Shown here one piece after another: positions 1 through 48,408 of a DNA stretch of 48,408 nucleotides. Both the position numbers and the translations under genes were made by a program. The notes beneath the pieces are model-generated. The model was not told the DNA's origin. It saw nothing but the letters and a program-made list of their open reading frames with translations, and did no database searches. Source of the DNA: a virus; the IMG/VR virus record IMGVR_UViG_3300050014_000239, positions 1-48,408 of that record. One strand, 5' to 3'. Position 1 is the stretch's first letter, and the number at the start of each line of letters is the position of its first letter.

Positions 1-93
1 CGCGGTCGCGGTCGTGGTCGCGGTCGCGGTCGCGGTCGTGGTCGCGGTCGGGGTCGTGGTCGGGGTCGTGGTCGTGGTCGTGGTCGCGGTCGC
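1..93. repeat. GGTCGN hexamer tandem repeat at the contig edge
   Basis: About 15 copies of a six-base unit, GGTCG followed by C, T or G, run from the first base to position 93. Because the period is a multiple of three, it can be translated. The frame beginning at base 1 reads alternating Arg-Gly and stays open to a stop at 388-390, so it could be the RG-rich tail of a gene lying mostly outside the window. That reading would overlap the next gene by about 200 bases, which is unusual here. The frame that reads Val-Ala-Val through the repeat joins the downstream gene, but that gene has a much better start at 182. Confidence 0.8.
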
Positions 94-181
94 TATGACC
101 ATCGCGAGCACATATGTCGGCGGCACCACTCAAGAGGACAAGCCCGCCGTGCCCCCAAGCGCCTCTTACCCGGAGGGAGAG

Positions 182-13759: not shown

Positions 13760-13760
13760 G

Positions 13761-13832
13761 CCTCGCCATGCCATACCTTGCCAGACCTCGGCTCGCCTTG
13801 CCCGACCTTATCTGGCCCGACCTCACCAGACC
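13761..13832. repeat. NNNCC array, block A1 (15 units, period exactly 5)
   Basis: CC dinucleotides start at 13761 and then at every fifth base up to 13831, with only 13791 (GC) and 13811 (TC) off pattern. The three bases between are variable (ATG, ATA, TTG, AGA, CGA). The period cannot be coding. The block begins immediately after the plus-strand stop codon and ends just before a tRNA-like hairpin. Confidence 0.9.
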
Positions 13833-13835
13833 ACA

Positions 13836-13879
13836 AGGATTGGGCGCGGAGTCGAACCGCGCCTACGACCATCCAATCC
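13836..13879 (-). other. tRNA-like mini-hairpin (T-arm plus acceptor-like stem)
   Basis: On the minus strand the order is GGATTGG, nine bases (ATGGTCGTA), a 7-bp stem GGCGCGG/CCGCGCC with loop TTCGACT, and then CAATCC. The stem and loop look like a tRNA T-arm, and the outer GGATTG/CAATCC resembles an acceptor stem. The D- and anticodon arms are missing and there is no room for them. It may be a tRNA remnant, a tRNA-mimicking processing signal or a strong hairpin between convergent genes. It is flanked by the two NNNCC blocks. Confidence 0.5.
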
Positions 13880-13894
13880 ACTACCCATGCGTTG

Positions 13895-13951
13895 CCTTGC
13901 CCTACCCCACCCAACCTCACCGAACCCGGCCGAGCTGCACCGCACCTGGCC
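13895..13951. repeat. NNNCC array, block A2 (12 units)
   Basis: CC recurs at 13895, 13900, 13905 and so on to 13950, with one exception (13935, CT). The block stops at the base next to the stop codon of the minus-strand gene, so relative to that gene's mRNA it reads GGNNN. Confidence 0.9.
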
Positions 13952-14817
13952 CTACAAGATCGTGAAGTTCGTAACCTCATACCTCCCGTAGGTCGGCCGG
14001 AAGTCGGCCAAGCCCACAAGCCGTCCCGCCTGCCCGATGACCTCGTTCAACTCGGACGGGTTGATGTACTCGGGCGTCTGGACCATCAGGTCGAACACGG
14101 CTTCCCAGCCCGAGAGCATCGCGGGACGCACACGGGTCACGCCAGCGCGCTGGACGGTCACACGCCGTTCGTCGAGGTAGTCCCAATCGGCGGTCCCGAG
14201 GCTCGCCAGATCGGTCAGGACGATCACCCCGGCCTTGTAGAGATCGAGCGCCGACTTGCGTGTCGAGCGGGGGTCCTGCCGGTACTTCGCCGCTCCCTGC
14301 GGGCCGGCGATTGCGCCCTTCAAGTACGCGCCGGGGATCGCCAACTCGCCCTCCGTCGTGCGGTAGACGTAGCTGTCGATGTTGTCGGTCTTCTTAGCCG
14401 CCGAGTTCTTGCGGGCGGCGGCCTTCGCCGCCACCGCCTCATTGCTCCATCGGTGGAAGAGGATCGGGCAGACGACAGCAGCACAGCAAGCACCCGCAGT
14501 ATCGGCCGGTGGAACGCCGGTTCCCGAGGGTCCACGGACCCGAAGAGCCTGTGAAGGACGGGCGTCGTCGAAGACCCCTGAGACGCTCGAACCCTCCAGG
14601 AAGCAAAGGGAGCAAGGAGCCGGGCGACCGGCACCCCAAGCCCAAGCTATTCTCACGCCCCTCGGGGCGTGAGCGAAACCCCGGCCTTCAGGCGGGGGAG
14701 GTTCATCGTGTAGGGCTCCTCGAATGCGATCGTCGAGGCTCCGTCGTTTGCCTGCTGCTCGCCCATCTGCTCGGGCTTGCCGTTCTTGCTCGCGCGTACC
14801 TTGGTAGCCTGCGCCAT
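13952..14817 (-). pseudogene. conserved phage hypothetical gene interrupted by omega-RNA-like copy 1
   Basis: The minus-strand gene has a strong ribosome site (AGGAGGT) and ATG at 14817. Its first 37 codons end at 14707 (FEEPYT). A 239-base insertion (14706-14468) then brings a stop after 17 foreign codons and a frame change. The remaining 171 codons (14467-13955) read on as PILFHRWSNEAV and KKTDNIDSYVYRTTEGE, ending RPTYGRYEVTNFTIL. This C-terminal block resembles a conserved but uncharacterised phage/prophage protein family. From memory, a few residues between the two halves seem to be missing, so the insertion may also have removed sequence. The gene stands alone on the minus strand within the head operon, like a moron. 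Confidence 0.75.
14468..14706 (+). mobile_element. omega-RNA scaffold/IS605-type right end, copy 1 (orphan)
   Basis: These 239 bases are identical to 28773-29011. They comprise the last codons of a TnpB frame and a 10-bp perfect hairpin (CTCACGCCCC/GGGGCGTGAG). A second hairpin (CCCCGGCCT/AGGCGGGG) and the terminal GAGGTTCAT follow. As I recall, the ISDra2 TnpB reRNA ends in a hairpin followed by GAGGTTCAA and then the guide, so the anatomy matches an omega-RNA scaffold. No tnpB core, left end or tnpA accompanies it. The potential guide begins CGTGTAGGGCTCCTC at 14707. Confidence 0.8.
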
Positions 14818-14844
14818 GTCGAACCTCCTGGTTAGGTTTGGCCA

Positions 14845-20270: not shown

Positions 20271-20995
20271 TGAAGGTTGTCGTAGGTGCACCCGTAGCCG
20301 CACGAGACTGGGCCTTGAAGCGCTGGTTCGAGTGCCTGTACTCACAGACCCGCGTCCCCGACGAGTTCGTGTTCGTCGTCAAGGACGTGGACGGTGACCG
20401 CTCAAGGCAGCTTTTGCACGAGCTGGGACCCAAGCCACCAGCGCTCAGCTACGCCATCGACACGACGCGATATGTCCCGAGGATGGAGCGCAACAGCGTG
20501 GGGGCCGAGTACGTGTATGCCGACTTCGCATGGCGCAGGAACCGACTGCTTCAGATGGTCCGTAAGCGCGAACCGGATGTCTTCCTCAGTCTCGACACAG
20601 ACATCATGCTCGAAGACCCGACCACGATTGAGCGGCTGCTTGAGCTGCTTGAGCGGGCGCCTGTCGCCGCGCCGCTCACCTACTTGCACCCTGCCGCAGC
20701 AGCATCCGAGTGTTTCAACGCGGGCTGGTGGGCCGGCGGCGAGCCGGGAAGTCCGACGCGCGCCTGGCGACGTGCGACGGTCGATGAGGCGCACGGCACG
20801 ATCCCAGTGGACATCCCGATGGCTGCTGTGGCGATGCACCGTCGAGTGGTCGATACCTGCAAGTACGCCTACCACGAGTGCGGCGAGGATATGGGCTTCG
20901 CGCAGGATCTTGACCGGCTCGGCTACACCTGCTTGTGGGACACGGATCTTGGGGTTCGTCATGTCATGGCAGCAGAGGAACTGGGGGCAACATGA
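20270..20995 (+). CDS. glycosyltransferase, GT-A fold (first of the cassette)
   Basis: This 241-residue protein opens VVVGAPVAARDWALKRWFECL, the nucleotide-binding start of GT-A enzymes. It has the metal/nucleotide-sugar motif FLSLDTDIML near residue 106, and a later HECGEDMGFAQDLDRLGY that fits the acidic catalytic helix. It is shorter than complete GT2 enzymes but has both halves of the fold. It would move a sugar from a nucleotide donor to a protein or growing glycan. ATG overlaps with both neighbours place it in the structural operon. Confidence 0.7.
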   Translation: MKVVVGAPVAARDWALKRWFECLYSQTRVPDEFVFVVKDVDGDRSRQLLHELGPKPPALSYAIDTTRYVPRMERNSVGAEYVYADFAWRRNRLLQMVRKREPDVFLSLDTDIMLEDPTTIERLLELLERAPVAAPLTYLHPAAAASECFNAGWWAGGEPGSPTRAWRRATVDEAHGTIPVDIPMAAVAMHRRVVDTCKYAYHECGEDMGFAQDLDRLGYTCLWDTDLGVRHVMAAEELGAT

Positions 20996-21963
20996 GGCGG
21001 GCACTCATCACGGGGATCGGTGGCATGGACGGTTCACACCTAGCCGACCTGCTGCTGGAGAAGGGCTACGAAGTCTTCGGCTTGGTCCGTCGCAGCGCAC
21101 GGCCACCATCGCCCAACCTCGACTACTGCAAGGACCGGATCACTCTCCTGCACGGAGATCTCTGCGATGAGTCCTCGTTGCACCGCGCTGTGGCTGAGTG
21201 CGAGCCCCACGAGGTCTACAACCTAGCCGCGCAGAGCTTCGTCGGCGCGAGCTGGGAGCTACCGCTCATCACCGCCGACATCACTGGACTCGGGGTCGGA
21301 AGGATGCTTGAGGCCGTACGCACACATGCTCCCGATGCGCGCTTCTACCAAGCCTCCTCCAGTGAGATGTTCGGTGACACCGACGGCTTTCTCGACGAGC
21401 AATCCCACTTCAAGCCGCGATCGCCCTACGGAGTGGCAAAGGCATTCGGCCATAACCTGGCGGTCAACTACCGCGAGAGCCACGGTATGCACGTGAGCTG
21501 CGGCATCCTCTTCAACCACGAGTCCGAGCGCCGGGGCCTTGAGTTCGTCACGCGTAAGATCACTCATCGCGTGGCAGAGATCAAGCTGGGCCTAGCCGAC
21601 TGCCTGAGTCTCGGCGCTCTGACGCCACAGCGGGACTGGGGCTATGCACCGGACTACGTTCAAGCGATGTGGCTCATGCTCCAGCGGGATGAGCCCGATG
21701 ACTACGTGATCGCCACCGGAGAGTGCCACAGCGTCCAGGAGTTCGCCGAGGAGGCATTCGGGGACTGGGACTGGGCCAAGTACACCACCACGTCCGATGC
21801 ACTACGCCGGCCAGCGGAGATCGCGGTCCTGCGCGGCGATTCCAGCAAGGCACTCTCCGAGCTGGGATGGAAGCCGACGGTTGAGTTCGAGGAGATCGTC
21901 GCGCGAATGGTCGAGCACGATCTTGCTCTTTGCGGCGATGGTCGTCTGAAGGCTTGCGTATGA
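20992..21963 (+). CDS. gmd: GDP-mannose 4,6-dehydratase
   Basis: The 323-residue product is a short-chain dehydrogenase of the extended type. The NADP-binding GIGGMDGSHLA (Gly8, Gly11, Gly14) corresponds to GITGQDGSYLA of Gmd. The catalytic Ser124-Glu125 lies in SSSEMFG and the Tyr146-x3-Lys150 in YGVAK. LFNHESERRGLEFVTRKI and RDWGYAPDYVQAMW are the family's substrate-side blocks. It converts GDP-mannose to GDP-4-keto-6-deoxymannose. No reductase that would finish GDP-fucose or GDP-rhamnose is seen; the C-methyltransferase downstream could act on the keto sugar. Start: ATGA overlap. Confidence 0.9.
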   Translation: MRRALITGIGGMDGSHLADLLLEKGYEVFGLVRRSARPPSPNLDYCKDRITLLHGDLCDESSLHRAVAECEPHEVYNLAAQSFVGASWELPLITADITGLGVGRMLEAVRTHAPDARFYQASSSEMFGDTDGFLDEQSHFKPRSPYGVAKAFGHNLAVNYRESHGMHVSCGILFNHESERRGLEFVTRKITHRVAEIKLGLADCLSLGALTPQRDWGYAPDYVQAMWLMLQRDEPDDYVIATGECHSVQEFAEEAFGDWDWAKYTTTSDALRRPAEIAVLRGDSSKALSELGWKPTVEFEEIVARMVEHDLALCGDGRLKACV

Positions 21964-23012
21964 GGCCGTTCTCAGTGGTGGCTCCTCTAGTGTCTGCCGA
22001 CGGGTACGGGGTCAGTGCGGAGCAGATGGTGCTCGCTGCGACTGACCTTGGCGCAGACATCGAGTTCGTCTCTCACGACTGGTCCGACCCGCGCTATACC
22101 GACTCGAAGCTGCTGGATCTCCAGGCACCGCAGATCACGCGCGATGTCGTGGTGGTTCACTTCCTTCCCTTCGCGTTCACGCGGTTCCGCGCTTCGGTCA
22201 CGCTCGGCTCGACCATGTTCGAGACGGACTCGATCCCGCCGTTCTGGATACCGTGCTGCAACGCGACAAACGGGATCATCGTCCCGTCAGAGCACTGTAG
22301 AGAAGCGTTCCAGCCGCATCTCGACGTGCCAGTGGAGGTTGTGCCACTCGGGGTCGATACGGGCTTCTACCGGCCCGTAGAGCGTGAGCATGAGGGTTCG
22401 TTCACGTTCCTGATGACCGGGCTGCTGCACTACCGCAAGGGCGCAGACCTAGCCATCCGAGCGTTCCGGGAGGAGTTCGCCGGCGAGGATGTCCGTCTGG
22501 TGCTCAAGACGCGCCGCAGTTTCCTCGACGTAGGAGACGAGCGACTCGACGACCCTCGCATCCGAGTGATCGACGGAGACGCCACGCGAGAGGAGATGCG
22601 CGAGCTCTACACGATGGCCGACTGCTTCCTAGCGCCGTCCCGCGGTGAGGCGTCCGGTCTGACACCGCGTGAGGCAATGGCTACCGGCCTGCCGACGATC
22701 CTGACCGACTGGGGTGGCTTGCAAGAGATTGCGGATGAGTCCTACAGCTACCCAGTCGAGGTCGAGTGCTTGGAGCCCGCGCCGCCGAGCTGCTCAAGCT
22801 ATGACGCGAACGTGGCCGGCCATCAGCCGATTGGGAACTTCGCGCGCCCGAGTGTGACCGATCTACGGCGCAGGATGCGTGAGGTCTACTCCGATAGGCA
22901 GGCGGCGAACGCGAGGGGCTTAGCAGGCGCTGAGTTCGTCGCACGAGAGTTCAACTGGGGCAAGTGTGCTCGGCGGTGGTTGGACGTGATCGAGGGGATG
23001 GCGGGAACGTGA
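21960..23012 (+). CDS. glycosyltransferase family 4 (GT-B)
   Basis: The 350-residue product shows the GT4 layout. The N-terminal domain has GYGVSAEQMVLAA. The C-terminal nucleotide-sugar domain has FLMTGLLHYRKGADLAIRAF and RGEASGLTPREAMATGLPTI, the E-x7-E-like signature that holds the donor ribose and phosphate. It would transfer a hexose or deoxysugar with retention. It begins in an ATGA overlap with gmd and ends in a GTGA overlap. Confidence 0.85.
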   Translation: MRPFSVVAPLVSADGYGVSAEQMVLAATDLGADIEFVSHDWSDPRYTDSKLLDLQAPQITRDVVVVHFLPFAFTRFRASVTLGSTMFETDSIPPFWIPCCNATNGIIVPSEHCREAFQPHLDVPVEVVPLGVDTGFYRPVEREHEGSFTFLMTGLLHYRKGADLAIRAFREEFAGEDVRLVLKTRRSFLDVGDERLDDPRIRVIDGDATREEMRELYTMADCFLAPSRGEASGLTPREAMATGLPTILTDWGGLQEIADESYSYPVEVECLEPAPPSCSSYDANVAGHQPIGNFARPSVTDLRRRMREVYSDRQAANARGLAGAEFVAREFNWGKCARRWLDVIEGMAGT

Positions 23013-24340
23013 TCGGAGCGCAAATAATACTGGGCGACTTGCCGGAGCCCTTCCTAGCGGCTGCACTCAAGTCCATTGGCTGGTGCGACTACTTTACGGT
23101 GATCCAAACGGCCGATGGCACTGAGGGCCAAGCACGTAACATGCAGATCGTTCGGGATAACATCCCCTTCGGAAGGCTGAAGCAGGCGGTCATCAGCAGC
23201 GACGAAGGGTTTGCGGCGGCACGCAATATGGCGCTCGACCTAGTTCCCGATGGCGACTACGTGATGATCCTCGACGCCGATGAAGTTCACTACCCAGCTT
23301 GGAAGGACATCTGCGGCTACTACCTAGCCAGCGGTGCCGACTCGATCACTGCCGCCTTTCATCACTTCGTCTGCTACCGGGACGCGGTGCAGGCCATCTA
23401 CCCCCGCGAGATCGTCTTCCGCAAGTACCCCGAGACGCAGTTCGTCGGCAAGGTTCATGAGAAGCTGTATACGACTCGACGCAACCCCGTCACGGCGGAC
23501 TATCGCTACTGCCACTTCTCCTACCTCCGCCCGCAGCCCAACGTGTTCGAGCGGTGGCGGCGCTACAGCGAGATCGAAGGCGAACCCAACCACTACGACG
23601 GCCAGAGCCCCGAGCACATCATCGACGACCGGGTGAGCGTTGCGACACGCTTCACGTTGGACTACCCGCCAGCCGTGGCCGACTTGATCGAGGACTACCC
23701 GGTCTGTCCGGTTGCGTTGCAAGGCGAGAGCGAACCCGAGCCACTGAAGGTCGGGCTCGTGTTGCTGACGATGCCCGGCGATGAGGAGCAGGTCAAGGCG
23801 ATGATCGCGACGCTACGCCAGACGGAGAGCGACTACCGCATCTACCGACTGAATGCGCCGGGACCCACCCTGTCGCTTGCGGAGTCGCTCAATCGCATGT
23901 TCCGCGAGGCGCTCGACGAGGGCTGTGAGTACATCGGGTGGATTCACCCGGACATGCGCTTCAACGATCCCGAGTGGCTCAAAGGCTTGCTACACGAGTT
24001 GCGCTGCTGGCCGAAGGTCGGGAAGGTCTGTGCGGCGAATACGCGCGACCCGATCCCCGAGGACGTGATTGACGGACACGAGCAGTGCTACTTGATCCGA
24101 GCGAGCGTTCTACGCGAGATCGGACTGTTCGATGAGGGCTATATCGGGATCGGCGGATACGAGGACTGGGACATGAATCGACGGATCGTCAACGCCGGCC
24201 ACCGGGTCGTCATCACACCGCGCTCGCAGGTGTTTCACGAGGGTATGGCGACCCGCTCCAAGCGCGACACGAACGCCGAGGCCCAGGCCAACGCCGCGCG
24301 CTACGAAGCCAAGTGGGGCGACCGCGGGGCACCCGTGTGA
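23009..24340 (+). CDS. double-domain glycosyltransferase (two fused GT2-like modules)
   Basis: This 443-residue protein carries two GT-A domains. Residues 1-235 hold an N-terminal unit with FAAARNMALDL, the donor motif MILDADEVH and later HFSYLRPQPNVFERW, as in protein or core glycosyltransferases. Residues 248-443 hold a second unit with LVLLTMPGDEEQVKAMIATL, IGWIHPDMRFNDPEW and GGYEDWDMNRR, the ED-containing catalytic site. Two active sites in one chain could add two successive sugars. The GTG start lies in a GTGA overlap. The closest alternative is one active and one binding domain. Confidence 0.75.
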   Translation: MIGAQIILGDLPEPFLAAALKSIGWCDYFTVIQTADGTEGQARNMQIVRDNIPFGRLKQAVISSDEGFAAARNMALDLVPDGDYVMILDADEVHYPAWKDICGYYLASGADSITAAFHHFVCYRDAVQAIYPREIVFRKYPETQFVGKVHEKLYTTRRNPVTADYRYCHFSYLRPQPNVFERWRRYSEIEGEPNHYDGQSPEHIIDDRVSVATRFTLDYPPAVADLIEDYPVCPVALQGESEPEPLKVGLVLLTMPGDEEQVKAMIATLRQTESDYRIYRLNAPGPTLSLAESLNRMFREALDEGCEYIGWIHPDMRFNDPEWLKGLLHELRCWPKVGKVCAANTRDPIPEDVIDGHEQCYLIRASVLREIGLFDEGYIGIGGYEDWDMNRRIVNAGHRVVITPRSQVFHEGMATRSKRDTNAEAQANAARYEAKWGDRGAPV

Positions 24341-24591
24341 TGACCGAACAATCCGCAGCGATAGGCGACATCGCCCGCTACGCCGACCTGCTCTGCGCCC
24401 TGGGCGAACTCGAAGACCGCAAGCGCGAGATCGAGGCTGAGCAAGCTGAGCTGGGAGAGACGGTGATCCCCGAGCTGCGAAAGGTGGGCGTCGTCACGAT
24501 GGAAGGCAAGAACGGCGTCGAGATCTCTCTGTGGGCGGAGCGCGATCCCGAGGACGGGACCTACAACGTGGAATCGCGGGTGAGCGCATGA
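24340..24591 (+). CDS. small coiled-coil hypothetical protein in the sugar cassette
   Basis: The 83-residue product has a helical N-terminus (LCALGELEDRKREIEAEQAELGETVIPEL) and a short beta-like C-terminus. It resembles small phage DNA-metabolism accessory proteins more than sugar enzymes. A TGATGA junction links it to the fusion glycosyltransferase, and an ATGA overlap links it to the next gene. Confidence 0.5.
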   Translation: MTEQSAAIGDIARYADLLCALGELEDRKREIEAEQAELGETVIPELRKVGVVTMEGKNGVEISLWAERDPEDGTYNVESRVSA

Positions 24592-25817
24592 ACTGTCGCA
24601 ACTGCCAAGCGGAGCTGACCCGCGTGTTCGTGGACCTTGGCACATCACCGCTGTCGAACGCCTACGTGCGTACGGACCAGCTCGACGAGCCCGAACCGCA
24701 CTTCCCGCTGCGCCCGTATATCTGTGACGAGTGCTTGCTCGTGCAACTACCAGTCTTCGAGACGCCCGAGGAGATCTTCGGCGACTACGCTTTCTTCTCG
24801 GGCCAATCGCAGACGTGGGTCAAGCACTGCGACGACTTCGCCACGAAGGCCGTCCAGAGATTCCGTCCGGAGCGCGTGCTTGAGCTGGCGAGTAACGACG
24901 GGACGATGCTGCGCGCGTTCCAGCGTTGGGACGTGACCGCGACAGGAGTAGAGCCTGCTCGCAACGTGGCCCGACAAGCCCTGCTGGAAGGCCTGCCGAC
25001 CATCGACCGATTCTTCACGTCGGAGCTGGCGGACGAACTGGTCGCCGATGGCTACCGTGCTGACCTGATCGTGGCGAACAACGTGCTCGCGCACGTTCCG
25101 GACCTGGACGACTTCATCGGCGGGATCAAGACGGTGCTGGCACCGGATGGTGTCGTGAGCATCGAGGTCCCGAGCCTCGTCAAGCTGATCGAGGGCAACC
25201 AGTTCGACACGATCTATCACGAGCACTTCAGCTACTTCACGCTGCGCGCACTCTGCGACGTGCTGTACCGGCGCGGCTTGTACGTCTTCGACCTCGAAGA
25301 GCTGCCGACGCATGGCGGCTCGCTGAGGGTCTATGCGCAGCACTACACGGGGAACAATCTCTACTCCTCACGTCTAAACGATGCCACTACCCACGAGGTG
25401 CGCGAGGGCTTCGCTGAGATCGACGCTTATCTGGACTACGCACACAAGCCGGCCGAACTCAAGCAGCGGATGATGGAGTTGCTGACCGGACTGCGCCGCG
25501 AAGGCAAGCACATCGCGGGCTACGGTGCGCCGGCCAAGGCCACGACCTTCCTTTCCTACTGCGGCATCGGTCCGGAGACAATCGAGTTCATCGTTGATTC
25601 GACACCCTCCAAGCAGGGCAAGTACCTACCGGGGGCCCGCATCCCGATCTTCCCGCCGGAGCATCTGACGGTCGAGCAGCCGGACGTGATCGTGATTCTC
25701 CCCTGGAACTGGAAGGACGAGATCGCCGCCAAGATCGAGCGCGACTGCGACTGGAATCCGATGGTGCTCTGCCGTGACGAGGTGCTGAGCGGTGGACTCG
25801 TTGCTCTCGCCGCCTGA
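24588..25817 (+). CDS. sugar C-methyltransferase (NDP-keto-sugar type)
   Basis: The 409-residue product follows the TylCIII/NovU-like three-part plan. An N-terminal zinc domain has Cys3, Cys6, Cys46 and Cys49. A SAM-binding Rossmann domain has VLELASNDGTML (97-108). A C-terminal domain includes GYGAPAKATTFLSYCGI. The conserved IYHEHFSYF holds the Tyr-His pair that assists carbon methylation next to the keto group. Substrates of this family are 4-keto-6-deoxy sugar nucleotides. Gmd upstream supplies one, so together they would make a branched-chain sugar. Confidence 0.85.
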   Translation: MNCRNCQAELTRVFVDLGTSPLSNAYVRTDQLDEPEPHFPLRPYICDECLLVQLPVFETPEEIFGDYAFFSGQSQTWVKHCDDFATKAVQRFRPERVLELASNDGTMLRAFQRWDVTATGVEPARNVARQALLEGLPTIDRFFTSELADELVADGYRADLIVANNVLAHVPDLDDFIGGIKTVLAPDGVVSIEVPSLVKLIEGNQFDTIYHEHFSYFTLRALCDVLYRRGLYVFDLEELPTHGGSLRVYAQHYTGNNLYSSRLNDATTHEVREGFAEIDAYLDYAHKPAELKQRMMELLTGLRREGKHIAGYGAPAKATTFLSYCGIGPETIEFIVDSTPSKQGKYLPGARIPIFPPEHLTVEQPDVIVILPWNWKDEIAAKIERDCDWNPMVLCRDEVLSGGLVALAA

Positions 25818-26418
25818 GTTGAGCGTATGCATACCAACTCTCCGCCGGTCAGAGCACCTGGAGCGGGCGGTTGAGTCGGTCGCACGCCATACCGCCCATG
25901 TGGACTACGAGATCGTGGTCGTGCATTGCGGCGGACGGGTACGTGGCTACACCGCGCCGATGAACCAGGCGATGCGTGCCGCGAGAGGTGAGTTTCTGCT
26001 GGCGCTCAACGATGACGTTGAAGTGTCGGACGGGTGGATAGACCCGCTGCTTGAACAGGCGAGAGCCGGAGTGTGGGCCTGCACGCCGGACATGACGCAC
26101 ACGGATGGTCCTCAGGTGTTCGCTCCCTACTGCCTGCTTCTGCGCCGGGAGGCGTTGGAGGAGTTGGGCGGCCTGGACGAGCGGTTCGTCTTGTGGGCCT
26201 CTGACATCGACCTAGCCCGTCGCCTCATTGAGGCTGGTCATCCGCCGGTCAAGGTGCTGCTGCCGAACCCGATCACGCATACGGTCGGCGCCACCGGAGC
26301 CGAGAATCCCGAGCTCGCCGCCGAGCTTGGCCGGATCTGCTTGGAAGACCTCGATCGCTACCGCGCGAAGTGGAGCGTTGGGGCTAATGATGACAAGGGC
26401 AGGATGGCGCTGCTGTGA
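25792..26418 (+). CDS. glycosyltransferase family 2 (mini-GT2, paralogue 1)
   Basis: This 208-residue protein has LSVCIPTLRRSEHLERAVESV at its start and YEIVVVHCGG. The donor motif is LALNDDVEVSDGW (the NDD form of DxD), and GGLDERFVLWASDIDLARRL carries the acceptor-side ED/DxD-like residues. It shares the layout of the products at 27053 and 29352, pointing to local duplication. It starts at GTG inside the end of the preceding gene. Confidence 0.8.
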   Translation: MDSLLSPPELSVCIPTLRRSEHLERAVESVARHTAHVDYEIVVVHCGGRVRGYTAPMNQAMRAARGEFLLALNDDVEVSDGWIDPLLEQARAGVWACTPDMTHTDGPQVFAPYCLLLRREALEELGGLDERFVLWASDIDLARRLIEAGHPPVKVLLPNPITHTVGATGAENPELAAELGRICLEDLDRYRAKWSVGANDDKGRMALL

Positions 26419-27068
26419 GCGTCCTATGCGTCTACCTGCGCGGTCCCGAAGGCTCCGTGTTCGACAGCTACGCGATCCGGTTCCTCACGTCCTACCTCAG
26501 CCATCCGGCTGGCGCCGAGCACGAACTGCGGATGGTCCCGAACGCCACCAACATCGACATCGGGATCTTCCAGCGCATCGCTCGTGAGGAGTCGGCGGAT
26601 CGCATCATGTTCCTCGGCAGCTACGCCCGCGTTCGTTACGACGACTGGCTGGCGAAGCACCTTGACGCGATCGAGCCGGATGACGTGGCGATGGTGGCCC
26701 CGAATGGATCGTGGGAGCAGGGCTACTCCACCCGGCTGCCCAACCCGCATCTGCGAACGTCGAACTTCATGGTCAAGCCGGCGCTGCTCAATGCGCTGGG
26801 TCTACCGGTCTACACGGACAAGCGCGAGTGCTACGAGTTCGAGCACGGTGACGCATCCGTCTACAGGCAGTTCACAGACGCGGGCTTGCGGTGCTTGGTG
26901 GTTGGTCAGGAGTGCTCCTACGGTGAGCGCGCGTGGCCCGACTCGGGCACGTTCCGCGTCCCGGGCCAACCCAATCTGCTCATCGCCGACAAGCAGTCAG
27001 ACGCTTACGACGCCGCTGGTCCGGACGAGAAGCGCGACCTTGAGAGGCGAGCATGGTCAGCATCGTAG
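26415..27068 (+). CDS. glycosyltransferase-like protein
   Basis: The 217-residue product has GT-A-like outlines: a beta-alpha start (VLCVYLRGPEGSVFDSYAI), MFLGSYARVRYDDWL in the place of the donor motif, and TSNFMVKPALLNALG and CYEFEHGDASVYRQFTDAGLR in the acceptor half. The DxD residues are not clear, so it may be a non-catalytic or divergent member. GTGA overlaps place it between two GT2 genes. Confidence 0.55.
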   Translation: MSVLCVYLRGPEGSVFDSYAIRFLTSYLSHPAGAEHELRMVPNATNIDIGIFQRIAREESADRIMFLGSYARVRYDDWLAKHLDAIEPDDVAMVAPNGSWEQGYSTRLPNPHLRTSNFMVKPALLNALGLPVYTDKRECYEFEHGDASVYRQFTDAGLRCLVVGQECSYGERAWPDSGTFRVPGQPNLLIADKQSDAYDAAGPDEKRDLERRAWSAS

Positions 27069-27667
27069 TTCCCTCCTTCAAGAACCATCCGGCGCTGTTC
27101 CGGGTGATGCGCGCTATCGAGCCGACGACACCCGGCGACTACGAGATCATCGCCGTGGACCAGGGCCGTGCGCGCGGCTGCGTCTCAGCGACCAACCAGG
27201 GCTTGCGGGCGGCGAAGGGCGACGTGCTGGTGATGATGAACGACGACTGCATCCCAGCGGACGGATGGCTGGGACCGCTTCTCGCGGAGATCGAGGCGGG
27301 AGCTTGGCTCGTTGGCCCGGACTGGCGTTATGCGCGGCTAGCAGGGCACTGCACCGCCATGTCGCGGGCGTGCTACGAGGCCACCGGAGGACTCGACGAG
27401 CGCTTTCGCCACTGGTGCGCCGACCACGATCTTGAGCTGCGGGTGGCCGACATGGGTGGCGTCATCCGCCAGGCCGTCGAATCGCATGTCACCCACGAGT
27501 ACAACGACCCGAACCGCATCCACCATCGCGCGACGACCCACACCGGCAACTGGGAGGAACTGCCGAACGTCGGCCAGTGGTACCTCGACGATATGGAGGT
27601 CTACCGCTCGATCTGGGGGACTCGCACGATCCATGACCTGCCGGGCTATGGGGATGGCTGGGAATGA
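27053..27667 (+). CDS. glycosyltransferase family 2 (mini-GT2, paralogue 2)
   Basis: The 204-residue product has VSIVVPSFKNHPALFRVM, YEIIAVDQGRARG and VMMNDDCIPADGWLGPL. HCTAMSRACYEATGGLDERF precedes the acidic DHDLELRVADMGG. The close match to paralogue 3 (VSATNQGLRAAKGDVLVMMNDD against WAANRGLRAAEGELLVLLNDD) shows recent duplication. It probably adds a single sugar. Confidence 0.8.
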   Translation: MVSIVVPSFKNHPALFRVMRAIEPTTPGDYEIIAVDQGRARGCVSATNQGLRAAKGDVLVMMNDDCIPADGWLGPLLAEIEAGAWLVGPDWRYARLAGHCTAMSRACYEATGGLDERFRHWCADHDLELRVADMGGVIRQAVESHVTHEYNDPNRIHHRATTHTGNWEELPNVGQWYLDDMEVYRSIWGTRTIHDLPGYGDGWE

Positions 27668-28560
27668 AGATCGGCTACCTGACGAGCTACGGGACGGCGT
27701 GCGGCGTGAGTGAGTATGCGCGGCATCTTGCCGGTGCCTTCCGGCGATGCGATGGCGTGGAGTTGACCGTGCTCGGCTCGCGCAATGTGGGCGCACGGCG
27801 ACTGATCGAGCCTGAGTCGGGCACCGTGGAGTGCTTCGACATCGGCTGTTGGCGACCGGACGGCCGCTACTCCCTCGACGCCGATCTGATCCTCGCGCTT
27901 GACCTCGACGTGCTCCAGGTCAACTACCAGTCGATGCTACTTCAGCAGGAGCCACTCGGCCAACTTGCCCGTGACTTCAAGGGCGTGACGGCGGTCACGT
28001 TCCACGACTCCTGCAATCGCTCCGACTTCCCGGCTGACGCATTCGACATTCGATTCACGCACCGTGAAGGCGTTGGCCCGGCGAACCACGTCATCCCGTT
28101 CGGCATCGAGAACCACCCGCCGCTGGTCAGGACGTTTGGCCTGGGCCGCACCCGCGAGGATGTAATCCGGCTGATCTGTGATGCGCACGGCTGGACGTTC
28201 GAGAGTGCGGCCACGTCGGAGGCGGCGTTGGGTGGACAGACTTGGATGACCCAAGGCGAGCTGCACGCTTGGCTGCGAGAAGCCGACGCGATCGTGCTCT
28301 GGTACGACGACGTAGAGATGGCCGGATCGAGCCAAGCCGCGCGCACGGCGATCGCCACCCGCCGGCCGGTTTTCCTGAGCGACACGACATGGTTCCGCGA
28401 GATACCTTGCGGATACGGCGTCCACAAGCTCTCAAATGCAGCGGCGCTGGAGCGTTCGATGTTGCAGAGCCTCTCGCCGCCCTTCGTTGCGGAGTGCTCC
28501 TGGGATCGGGTGGCGGAGCTACATCTGAGCGCCTACGGGAGTAGAATTACGGCTACATAG
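27664..28560 (+). CDS. glycosyltransferase family 4-like protein
   Basis: The 298-residue product begins MKIGYLTSYGTACGVSEYARHLA, the glycine-rich acceptor-binding start of GT-B enzymes (GVSEYAR is typical of phage GT4 proteins). QVNYQSMLLQQEPLGQLARDFKG continues the first domain. The C-terminal donor domain is shortened, and a clear E-x7-E is missing; AGSSQAARTAIATRRPVFLSD is the nearest equivalent. It may be divergent. It ends 24 bases before the interrupted gene. Confidence 0.65.
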   Translation: MKIGYLTSYGTACGVSEYARHLAGAFRRCDGVELTVLGSRNVGARRLIEPESGTVECFDIGCWRPDGRYSLDADLILALDLDVLQVNYQSMLLQQEPLGQLARDFKGVTAVTFHDSCNRSDFPADAFDIRFTHREGVGPANHVIPFGIENHPPLVRTFGLGRTREDVIRLICDAHGWTFESAATSEAALGGQTWMTQGELHAWLREADAIVLWYDDVEMAGSSQAARTAIATRRPVFLSDTTWFREIPCGYGVHKLSNAAALERSMLQSLSPPFVAECSWDRVAELHLSAYGSRITAT

Positions 28561-28570
28561 GCAGGCAACA

Positions 28571-28580
28571 GAAAGGCAGG
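28571..28580 (+). promoter_or_regulatory. extended ribosome-binding motif GAAAGGCAGG
   Basis: The same motif as at 12875 and 33670 lies four bases before ATG 28585. It shows that 28585 was the true start of the virion-type gene now split by the insertion. Confidence 0.55.
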
Positions 28581-28617
28581 ATTTATGAGGAAGATCATCG
28601 GGGCGGCACTCGGCGTC

Positions 28618-28772
28618 GTGAGCCCCTACCGGACCTCGCAGGAATGCTCTGCCTGCGGGCACGTCGCAGCGGAGAGCCGCGAAAGCCAAGCGGCCTTCCG
28701 TTGCGTGGCCTGCGGGTTCGAGCGCCACGCGGACATAAACGCCGCGTGCAACATCCGCGAGCGAGGGCTCGC
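28618..28772 (+). pseudogene. tnpB: TnpB C-terminal zinc-ribbon fragment
   Basis: About 50 residues match the end of IS200/IS605-type TnpB (OrfB). They read SPYRTSQECSACGHVAAESR, a CxxC pair; then QAAFRCVACGF, the second CxxC pair; then HADINAACNIRERG, containing the last RuvC aspartate and the conserved Asn-Ala-Ala. Everything before this (most of RuvC and the REC/WED regions) is missing, so the fragment cannot be a nuclease. It is in frame with the phage start codon at 28585, so a short chimera may be made. The coding frame continues into the omega-RNA-like sequence to 28977. Confidence 0.9.
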
Positions 28773-29011
28773 GCAGACGACAGCAGCACAGCAAGCACCC
28801 GCAGTATCGGCCGGTGGAACGCCGGTTCCCGAGGGTCCACGGACCCGAAGAGCCTGTGAAGGACGGGCGTCGTCGAAGACCCCTGAGACGCTCGAACCCT
28901 CCAGGAAGCAAAGGGAGCAAGGAGCCGGGCGACCGGCACCCCAAGCCCAAGCTATTCTCACGCCCCTCGGGGCGTGAGCGAAACCCCGGCCTTCAGGCGG
29001 GGGAGGTTCAT
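28773..29011 (+). mobile_element. omega-RNA scaffold/IS605-type right end, copy 2
   Basis: This copy is base-identical to copy 1 over 239 positions. Here it directly continues the TnpB frame, showing that the repeat is the 3' end of a tnpB gene plus its right end. It ends in GAGGTTCAT at 29011. The potential guide begins CGACAAGTGCATCGTTGGC at 29012. Confidence 0.85.
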
Positions 29012-29351
29012 CGACAAGTGCATCGTTGGCGAACATGGCTATCCGGAGCAGCAGGTCAAGGCCACGACCTCGGTTGAACACGCCAATATCACGGCGGCAT
29101 ATTCCGAGGCTGGCTTTACGTCTGGCTACACAACGCCAGATTGGCTCACCGGGACGCCCCAACCGCTATTCGGTACGCAGGAATACGAAACGAACGGCAA
29201 TCAACTGGCGGGGACCTTTACGTACACGACGCCAGCAGGTGCCAATGTCACAGCGACCTACCAATGGCTGACGGGCAACGAAACCCCCGTCCCCGCTCTC
29301 GGGAGCTACGAATGCGTGTTCTCGGGGATTGCGGAGATTGCTGGCGGTTAA

Positions 29352-29909
29352 GTGCTCGCCAGCATCGTCGTCCCGACCTACCGGAACTATGATGTGCTCA
29401 CACGCTGTTTGCGAGCGGTGCATGAGCACACGGAGGGCGACTACGAGCTGCTGGTGATTGACAACGGTTCGCGCGCCCGGGGCTGGACCTGGGCCGCGAA
29501 CCGTGGTCTGCGAGCCGCCGAGGGCGAACTGCTGGTGCTGCTCAACGATGATGTGGTCGTCATGGACGGTTGGCTTCCGCCGCTCTGGCGGGCCTTCCAC
29601 GATGAGCCCGACCTACTTGCCGCGTCTTCCTCTGACCCCGGCGGTGACAACTGGCCGCTCAACGTGTGGTGCGTGGCCTTCACGCGGGAGTCCTATCGGA
29701 CGGTGGGCGGCTTCGATGAGCGCTACATCCACTGGCAGTCTGACTGCGATCTAATGCAACGGATCACGGACATGGGCCGTCGGTATCAACGGGTGGAGGA
29801 GTCCCACGCTCGACACCTGCGCGGCGAGGCACCCACGGACGAGAAGACGCTCGCCACGATGCGTGCCTGGCACCGGAATGACTTTGACGGCCGTGAACCC
29901 GGCTGGTAA
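29352..29909 (+). CDS. glycosyltransferase family 2 (mini-GT2, paralogue 3)
   Basis: The 185-residue product, the shortest GT2 in the cassette, has ASIVVPTYRNYDVLTRCL, YELLVIDNGSRARGW, VLLNDDVVVMDGWLPPL and TVGGFDERYIHWQSDCDLMQRITDMG. The GTG start follows the TAA of the split gene without a gap. It is closest to the product at 27053. Confidence 0.8.
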   Translation: MLASIVVPTYRNYDVLTRCLRAVHEHTEGDYELLVIDNGSRARGWTWAANRGLRAAEGELLVLLNDDVVVMDGWLPPLWRAFHDEPDLLAASSSDPGGDNWPLNVWCVAFTRESYRTVGGFDERYIHWQSDCDLMQRITDMGRRYQRVEESHARHLRGEAPTDEKTLATMRAWHRNDFDGREPGW

Positions 29910-46812: not shown

Positions 46813-47316
46813 ATGACACAGCCAGTCCACGGACACTTCCATCTTCACGCCCCGAAGGCCGCCGATCAGGGCGAGACGCTCAGCGAACGAATCATGGCCG
46901 GCATCACCCGCAAGGTGGGAACGCTGGCGTGCGCGATCGTCTTCGCCGTGATCGCGTTCCTCGGCGCTCCGGCCAAGTTCGCCGAAGGCACCAAGGGCAT
47001 CATCGAATGGCTGGCGCAGCAATTCTTGCAATTGGTTTTGCTCGCGATCATCCTCGGCGGCCAGCGTGTCTCCGAAAAGATGGCGGACGCTCAGACCAAG
47101 CACATGGCACTCGGCATCGACACGACGCTCGATGCGCTTGATACGAAAACCGAGGGCGGCCTCAAGGTGATTCTCGCCGCCATCGAGGCAGGGAGACTTC
47201 CGGCTGTCGATGCCTTCGGGGAAAGGGTCCCACCGTCACCCAAGCCCAAGGCCAAGGCCAAGTCGAAGCCCATCGAACGGAAGTCCAAGATTCACTCAGG
47301 GAAGGCTGTCGAATGA
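46813..47316 (+). CDS. holin-like membrane protein
   Basis: The 167-residue product has two hydrophobic spans, VGTLACAIVFAVIAFLGA (residues 31-48) and LQLVLLAIILGG (about 69-80). An amphipathic region and a Lys/Pro-rich C-terminal tail (PKPKAKAKSKPIERKSK) follow. This topology next to an endolysin indicates a holin that times membrane opening. GGAAGGAATCAAG precedes the ATG; a GTG at 46783 is less likely. The stop overlaps the endolysin start. Confidence 0.65.
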   Translation: MTQPVHGHFHLHAPKAADQGETLSERIMAGITRKVGTLACAIVFAVIAFLGAPAKFAEGTKGIIEWLAQQFLQLVLLAIILGGQRVSEKMADAQTKHMALGIDTTLDALDTKTEGGLKVILAAIEAGRLPAVDAFGERVPPSPKPKAKAKSKPIERKSKIHSGKAVE

Positions 47317-48335
47317 CCAGACGCCTAATCATCTTCGCGGCCCTCTGCGCCGCACTTCTCGTGGGCGGCTGTGGCTCATCCTCTCTCCGGCCGCAGTCGC
47401 CTGCGACTAAGGCGAAGCTGATCCAGAAGGCGATCCAAGCCTGCCCCAAGGCCGCGAACGGAGCAGGGCACATGGGGGCATGTGCTCCTCCGAGCGTGGG
47501 GCTACATCGCCTTGGCACGTTCCGCATTCCCGCTGGCCCCATCTACCCCGATCGGTCAAACAACGATCCGACCTCGAATGTGGCGGGGATAGCCCGCGAC
47601 GGCCACCCGGCACTCGTCGTCAAGATCAACCAAGGCACGGGCTTCATCGACCGCACAGCCGCAGCGATGCTCAACCTAGCTCGCAGACACGGCCTCGCGG
47701 TGGGTGGTTACGACTTCGTTGAAGATTACGACGCAGCGGAGGCTTACGTGTTCGTGAAGCAGCTCCGCGCCGTGGGGGCGTGTTCGGGACGTGGAGTGCT
47801 TCCCCCGACCCTCGATGTGGAGTACGGAGCCTTCAGCTACTCCGGTCTTGCGCATATGGAAGCCATCGTGCGGCGCTCCTGCGGGCGCGTGAAGGACTAC
47901 ACGGGGGCTTGGTACTGGACCCCCCACGCAGGTTGTCGATGGCCCGCAGGCACTCCCGCGTGGCTCTCCGGCTATCCCTTCGCGCCGATCCCCTGCGGAC
48001 TTCCCCGAGCGCTCTACCTTGAGCACCAGTTCACGTCAGATGGTTGCGATGGGGCGTCGTGCGGTGTGGACCTGACCCGATTCAACGGGACGATGGCTCA
48101 GTTCCGGGCCTTCGCCCATATCGCCAGCCCGAAGCCCAAGCCAAACCCCCGTCGAGCCGTCCTTCTCCACCGTCGAGCCGTGCTGAGGGTCTTACTCACC
48201 CGTCATCGCTGCCGCACTGGACACGCCAAGCCTGCCCGTTACCGCTCGGCGTGTCGCACATGGCTTCACGAGGGCCAAATCATGAACCTCCCCCGCCTGA
48301 AGGCCGGGGTTTCGCTCACGCCCCGAGGGGCGTGA
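47313..48335 (+). CDS. GH25 endolysin with lipoprotein signal, C-terminus replaced by inserted element
   Basis: The 340-residue product begins with a lipobox signal (LIIFAALCAALLVGGCGSS), so the enzyme would be exported by the host and anchored by lipid. The GH25 muramidase domain follows, with ALVVKINQGTGFID, GYDFVEDYDA and the catalytic pair in LDVEYG (Asp168, Glu170). GAWYWTPHAGC and CGVDLTRFNG complete it. A basic C-terminal wall-binding-like tail (VLLTRHRCR, YRSACRTWLHEG) reaches residue 323. Residues 324-340 (MNLPRLKAGVSLTPRGA) come from the antisense strand of omega-RNA-like copy 3, so the original end is lost. Confidence 0.85.
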   Translation: MTRRLIIFAALCAALLVGGCGSSSLRPQSPATKAKLIQKAIQACPKAANGAGHMGACAPPSVGLHRLGTFRIPAGPIYPDRSNNDPTSNVAGIARDGHPALVVKINQGTGFIDRTAAAMLNLARRHGLAVGGYDFVEDYDAAEAYVFVKQLRAVGACSGRGVLPPTLDVEYGAFSYSGLAHMEAIVRRSCGRVKDYTGAWYWTPHAGCRWPAGTPAWLSGYPFAPIPCGLPRALYLEHQFTSDGCDGASCGVDLTRFNGTMAQFRAFAHIASPKPKPNPRRAVLLHRRAVLRVLLTRHRCRTGHAKPARYRSACRTWLHEGQIMNLPRLKAGVSLTPRGA

Positions 48336-48408
48336 GAATAGCTTGGGCTTGGGGTGCCGGTCGCCCGGCTCCTTGCTCCCTTTGCTTCCTGGAGGGTTCG
48401 AGCGTCTC
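48282..48408 (-). mobile_element. omega-RNA scaffold/IS605-type right end, copy 3 (partial at window end)
   Basis: The final 127 bases are the exact reverse complement of 14580-14706 and 28885-29011, including both hairpins and the terminal GAGGTTCAT. The element points left, antisense to the endolysin gene. Its potential guide, read on the minus strand from 48281, begins GATTTGGCCCTCGTGAAGCC. The rest of the element lies beyond the window. Confidence 0.85.

What the first reader, a model, noticed from the sequence alone, without database searches (positions are those of the whole stretch)
14468..14706. Orphan TnpB-type omega-RNA scaffold without its nuclease, inserted in a phage gene
The sequence shows two hairpins followed by GAGGTTCAT, and it is identical to a copy that continues a TnpB frame. 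The ISDra2 reRNA has the same end architecture. Copy 1 retains essentially only the stretch that would be the guide-RNA scaffold, with no tnpB core, no left end and no tnpA. A phage carrying bare omega-RNAs could supply guides to a TnpB made by the host or another element, or could just be a decayed insertion. Identity of the copies argues for recent spread or for selection on the RNA.
Basis: partly seen in the sequence, partly recalled or inferred. Interest (0 to 1): 0.85.

Follow-up and report, generated by a model that had tools for sequence, protein, structure and literature searches.

The report
Truncated IS605 remnants in a phage
Three identical pieces in this phage are the right-hand ends of a bacterial jumping gene (IS605 type) whose left parts have been lost; the piece still carries the guide-RNA scaffold of the TnpB nuclease, but the evidence points to broken leftovers rather than a working guide-RNA supply.

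Summary
Window 14468-14706 (C1) is the right end (RE) of an IS200/IS605 transposon, including a complete-looking TnpB guide-RNA (reRNA/omega-RNA) scaffold, with no left end, tnpA or tnpB core. C2 (28599-29011) has the same RE plus a tnpB C-terminal piece. I found the parent: a Solirubrobacterales MAG (palsa_744) carries a full 1896-bp IS605 (tnpA, 461-aa tnpB, target TTGAC, right end GAGGTTCAT) and a second copy 97% identical to the phage pieces. The phage copies share the exact right end but have different left ends. At C1, 33 homologues show that about 24-27 bp of the phage gene left of the insertion point is gone, and the gene is frameshifted. This fits full-length (or one-ended) IS605 insertion with loss of the left part and flank. 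No other copy turned up in viral contigs, phages, plasmids or about 600 sampled relative genomes. An orphan reRNA acting through a host TnpB is not excluded, but nothing positive supports it. Verdict: decayed IS605 insertions in a phage; a new member of a known kind.

The parts
14468..14706 (+). C1: IS605 right-end remnant (last ~66 codons of tnpB plus RE) containing the reRNA scaffold; left junction uncertain by 3-5 nt; right end exact after GAGGTTCAT
   Evidence: 233/238 identical to the MAG element L004
14707..14726 (+). would-be guide of C1 (CGTGTAGGGCTCCTCGAATG), phage gene sequence
   Evidence: position by analogy to ISDra2 reRNA (PMC8612924); transcription not tested; no second target found in window or fetched loci
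13952..14819 (-). phage gene interrupted by C1 (PHROG 4652, unknown function); N-terminal part MAQATK...FEEPYT at about 14707-14819, C-terminal part PILFHRW...NFTIL at about 13952-14467; about 24-27 bp missing and frame shifted
28599..29011 (+). C2: longer IS605 right-end remnant with tnpB C-terminal zinc-finger/TNB piece and the same reRNA scaffold
   Evidence: 402/413 identical to L004
28585..28605 (+). left flank of C2: start (MRKIIGA) of an interrupted phage gene, fused in frame to the tnpB piece (ORF 28585-28977); junction has microhomology CGGGxCGGC
29012..29351 (+). right flank of C2: remaining C-terminal part (about 111 aa) of the interrupted phage gene; its first ~16-20 nt would be the guide
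   Evidence: no homologue found
48282..48408 (-). C3: third right-end copy, inverted, cut by the end of the contig after exactly 127 nt; lies at the 3' end of a GH25-type endolysin gene (47313-48335)

Best explanation
C1, C2 and C3 are right-end remnants of an IS605 element from a Solirubrobacterales-like bacterium. Full-length (1.9-kb) elements inserted by TnpA 'peel and paste' just 3' of TTGAC sites in the phage. Left parts (LE, tnpA, most of tnpB and, at C1, about 24-27 bp of flank) were then lost by short-homology deletion, probably favoured because a capsid tolerates little extra DNA; alternatively the insertion was one-ended from the start. What remains keeps a sequence-intact reRNA scaffold as a by-product. 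Shown: parentage, exact right ends, different left ends, target loss at C1, absence of LE and tnpA. Inferred: deletion after insertion, the packaging pressure, absence of present function.
For: Parent found: L004 (Solirubrobacterales MAG) is 97% identical over 413 nt including tnpB. The same MAG holds a full element, L048:584-2479, with Y1 transposase and TnpB; joining its flanks at TTGAC|GGGCACC restores an unbroken ORF, which fixes target and ends; a second LE in that MAG also follows TTGAC. All phage copies and both MAG copies stop exactly at GGTTCAT. C1 and C2 start at different points of tnpB. The great majority of 33 homologous sequences of the C1 gene have ten residues between PYx and (I/L)LFH; the window retains at most one or two. 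One homologue (L035) has GTCAA, i.e. TTGAC on the element strand, exactly at the insertion point. No LE, tnpA or other RE in the window. Decay of IS605 elements down to an ends-only form is documented in Halanaerobium (PMC7290912).
Against: All retained pieces are right ends and none is a left end, though with two fully read copies this is weak (chance 1/4 to 1/2). No intermediate full-length copy or empty site of the same phage is available. The flank loss could be measured only at C1, by comparison with homologues 50-66% identical.
Confidence: 0.85

Rival explanations
1. Orphan reRNA acting in trans: during infection the remnants are transcribed (C2 lies in the direction of the phage genes around it), a host TnpB of the same family loads them, and the RNP cuts TTGAC-flanked copies of the uninterrupted site in competing or co-infecting phages, spreading the insertion by repair.
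For: The 160-nt 3' region is nearly invariant between phage and host elements; three hairpins persist with two compensatory base pairs between L038 and C1/L004. The MAG TnpBs appear to keep the D/E/D RuvC residues (read). TnpB and reRNA work when supplied from separate plasmids, and the reRNA is ~150 nt with a ~16-nt guide (PMC8612924), so C1 is long enough.
Against: Conservation reflects the host elements, not phage selection; covariation rests on three sequences and 49 of 500 shuffles reach it. No sigma-70-like promoter near C1 (a weak test), and C1 runs antisense to its gene. No other phage or viral contig carries the unit. Host identity is not shown.
Confidence: 0.06
2. A MITE/PATE-like non-autonomous element moved by a host TnpA in trans.
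For: Short multicopy unit with a precise right end.
Against: No left end or LE hairpin, left ends differ between copies, target deleted at C1. TnpA needs both ends (established for IS608/ISDra2).
Confidence: 0.02
3. Assembly chimera: the repeat is a collapsed metagenome IS and one or more junctions are false.
For: The contig ends inside C3 after exactly 127 nt, typical of a k-mer overlap at an unresolved repeat; the IS has more than one copy in the MAG.
Against: Both flanks of C1 are the same gene in order; C2 flanks are plausibly one gene; the exact right end recurs in five contexts. A chimera would not readily give different left breakpoints with flank microhomology.
Confidence: 0.06

Closest known systems
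IS605-type element of Solirubrobacterales MAG palsa_744 (L048/L038; L004)
   Same: Same tnpB C-terminus, RE hairpins and GAGGTTCAT end; 83-97% identical DNA
   Different: The bacterial copy is complete with LE, tnpA and tnpB; the phage copies lack the left part
ISDra2 (Deinococcus) TnpB-reRNA (PMC8612924)
   Same: IS200/IS605 family with tnpA and tnpB; insertion 3' of a 5-nt target; reRNA from the tnpB 3' end plus RE with guide from the flank
   Different: TTGAC target instead of TTGAT; phage copies have no nuclease; no activity shown
Decayed IS605 loci of Halanaerobium hydrogeniformans (PMC7290912)
   Same: Remnants of one IS605 family at different stages of decay, down to ends-only
   Different: There the ends-only form is PATE-like with both ends; here only the RE is kept, and in a phage

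Membership tests
IS200/IS605 transposon (IS605 group), as a remnant | TnpB homology at the 3' part | tested here: met
   C2 piece: Pfam PF07282 E=1.2e-14; 97% DNA identity to L004
IS200/IS605 transposon (IS605 group), as a remnant | Conserved right end with subterminal hairpin and exact boundary | tested here: met
IS200/IS605 transposon (intact element) | Left end and Y1 transposase | tested here: not met
   absent from window; present in parent
IS200/IS605 transposon (IS605 group), as a remnant | Insertion 3' of a fixed 4-5 nt target without duplication | tested here: inconclusive
   TTGAC shown for the parent; target lost at C1, homologue L035 fits
Functional TnpB reRNA (omega-RNA) | Scaffold sequence and fold | tested here: inconclusive
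   Sequence near-identical to host elements and hairpins shared, but covariation is weak and fold z-scores of the phage copies are only -1.6 and -2.0
Functional TnpB reRNA (omega-RNA) | Expressed, TnpB-bound RNA with 3' guide | not testable with these tools
   needs RNA data
Known Rfam RNA family | Match at gathering score | tested here: not met
MITE/PATE-like non-autonomous element | Both transposon ends present | tested here: not met

The most novel reading that the evidence does not exclude
The phage carries nuclease-free TnpB guide RNAs that borrow the host's TnpB to attack rival phages with an uninterrupted site, a guide-only homing or exclusion system.
Probability: 0.05. Interest if true: 0.85.

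Novelty: new member of a known kind. Interest (0 to 1): 0.25.

Why it matters
It shows an IS605/TnpB element entering one phage genome at least three times, and that broken copies can retain sequence-intact guide-RNA scaffolds. Orphan reRNAs can therefore be a by-product of decay, which has to be ruled out before function is claimed. If such a scaffold did work with a host TnpB, it would be a cheap route to RNA-guided conflict between phages.

Tried and rejected
Rfam scans at both thresholds found no omega-RNA family. Exact and degenerate right-end patterns in viral contigs gave nothing except L053, a chance match inside a phage protein gene without tnpB. Blastn in phages and plasmids found nothing. 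Homologues of the genes interrupted at C2 and C3 were sought to measure flank loss there; none, or only one that stops before the junction, was found. More distant TnpB relatives in viral contigs are only 24-42% identical and were not followed. A clean MITE was rejected because the left end is missing. Reading the identity of the copies as selection was rejected because the bacterial element is itself 97% identical. Host assignment through a phage sugar-epimerase gene gave only 48% protein identity in the MAG and says nothing about host.

Full report
What is there. The window is a 48,408-bp linear virus record. Terminase, portal, capsid, tape-measure and endolysin genes show a tailed phage. 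Repeat search finds C1 at 14461-14708 and C2 at 28766-29013 in direct orientation, and an inverted 127-nt copy C3 at 48282-48408 that ends with the contig. Element-derived sequence is 14468-14706, 28599-29011 and 48282-48408. The copies are identical wherever they can be compared. Directly upstream of its repeat, C2 carries an open TnpB C-terminal frame with the zinc-finger motif and the last RuvC aspartate region; C1 begins about 57 codons further into tnpB. No tnpA, left end or further right end exists in the window.

The parent. A 28-base right-end pattern scanned over one genome for each of 84,980 bacterial and archaeal species hit a single contig, L004, of a Solirubrobacterales MAG. L004 is 97% identical to C2 over 413 nt and holds at least 310 codons of tnpB. 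The same MAG has a complete 1896-bp element, L048:584-2479, with a divergent Y1 transposase and a 461-aa TnpB. Removing it at TTGAC|...|GGGCACC gives an uninterrupted ORF, so target and both ends are fixed. A second left end in the MAG also follows TTGAC. Among 232 genomes of the order no other has more than a short or weak DNA match, and among 396 genomes of the phylum no other has the right-end pattern.

How the phage copies arose. The right boundary is exact in C1, C2, C3, L004 and L038 while the left boundaries of C1 and C2 differ. For C1, 33 homologous sequences from 32 viral contigs show the uninterrupted gene: nearly all have ten residues between PYx and (I/L)LFH, whereas the window retains one or two. 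So roughly 24-27 bp left of the insertion point is gone and the frame is shifted. The insertion point lies right after the PYT codons; homologue L035 has GTCAA there, which is TTGAC on the element strand. Both left junctions show short homology between phage and tnpB sequence (CGGGxCGGC at C2; possibly GCAG at C1, inferred from homologue L012). The simplest reading is insertion 3' of TTGAC followed by short-homology deletion across the left end. A one-ended insertion that was repaired illegitimately would leave the same trace and cannot be told apart here.

The RNA. The last 160 nt fold into three main hairpins, the fold is well conserved between phage and bacterial copies, and two pairs change on both sides. 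With three sequences this is suggestive only. ISDra2 reRNA is ~150 nt with ~16 nt of guide from the flank (PMC8612924), and processed omega-RNA species of other TnpBs are 79-466 nt (PMC10278001), so the piece kept in C1 is long enough. No Rfam family matches. Nothing shows transcription, TnpB binding or a target elsewhere.

Assembly. C3 is exactly 127 nt long at a contig end, the mark of a k-mer overlap at an unresolved repeat (own knowledge of metaSPAdes settings). Its true extent is unknown. C1 is trustworthy because both flanks are parts of one gene in the right order; C2 is plausible for a similar reason but has no homologue to check.

Verdict. These are decayed IS605 insertions, a known kind of thing (PMC7290912), in an unusual place. 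Guide supply in trans remains an open but unlikely possibility (about 5%).

Noticed in passing
window 28585-28977: C2 leaves a 130-aa ORF fusing seven codons of a phage gene, behind a plausible ribosome-binding site, to the TnpB zinc-finger/TNB C-terminus.
   Followed up: partly
window 48282-48408: The contig ends inside the repeat after exactly 127 nt, suggesting an assembly break; the phage genome is probably incomplete on this side.
   Followed up: partly
window 20935-29909: Nucleotide-sugar epimerase, glycosyltransferase and methyltransferase-like genes between capsid and tail genes; C2 lies inside this cassette.
   Followed up: no
window 13760-13906: Degenerate GCC-TGCC-GACC repeats (18-nt unit, six copies at 72% or more) next to the C1 gene.
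   Followed up: no
window 1-108: Tandem CGCGGT-type repeat at the contig start.
   Followed up: no
window 13952-14819 minus; L005-L036: The C1 gene belongs to a phage protein family of unknown function (PHROG 4652) with a conserved AAKYRQDPRSPRKSA motif, found in 32 viral contigs.
   Followed up: no
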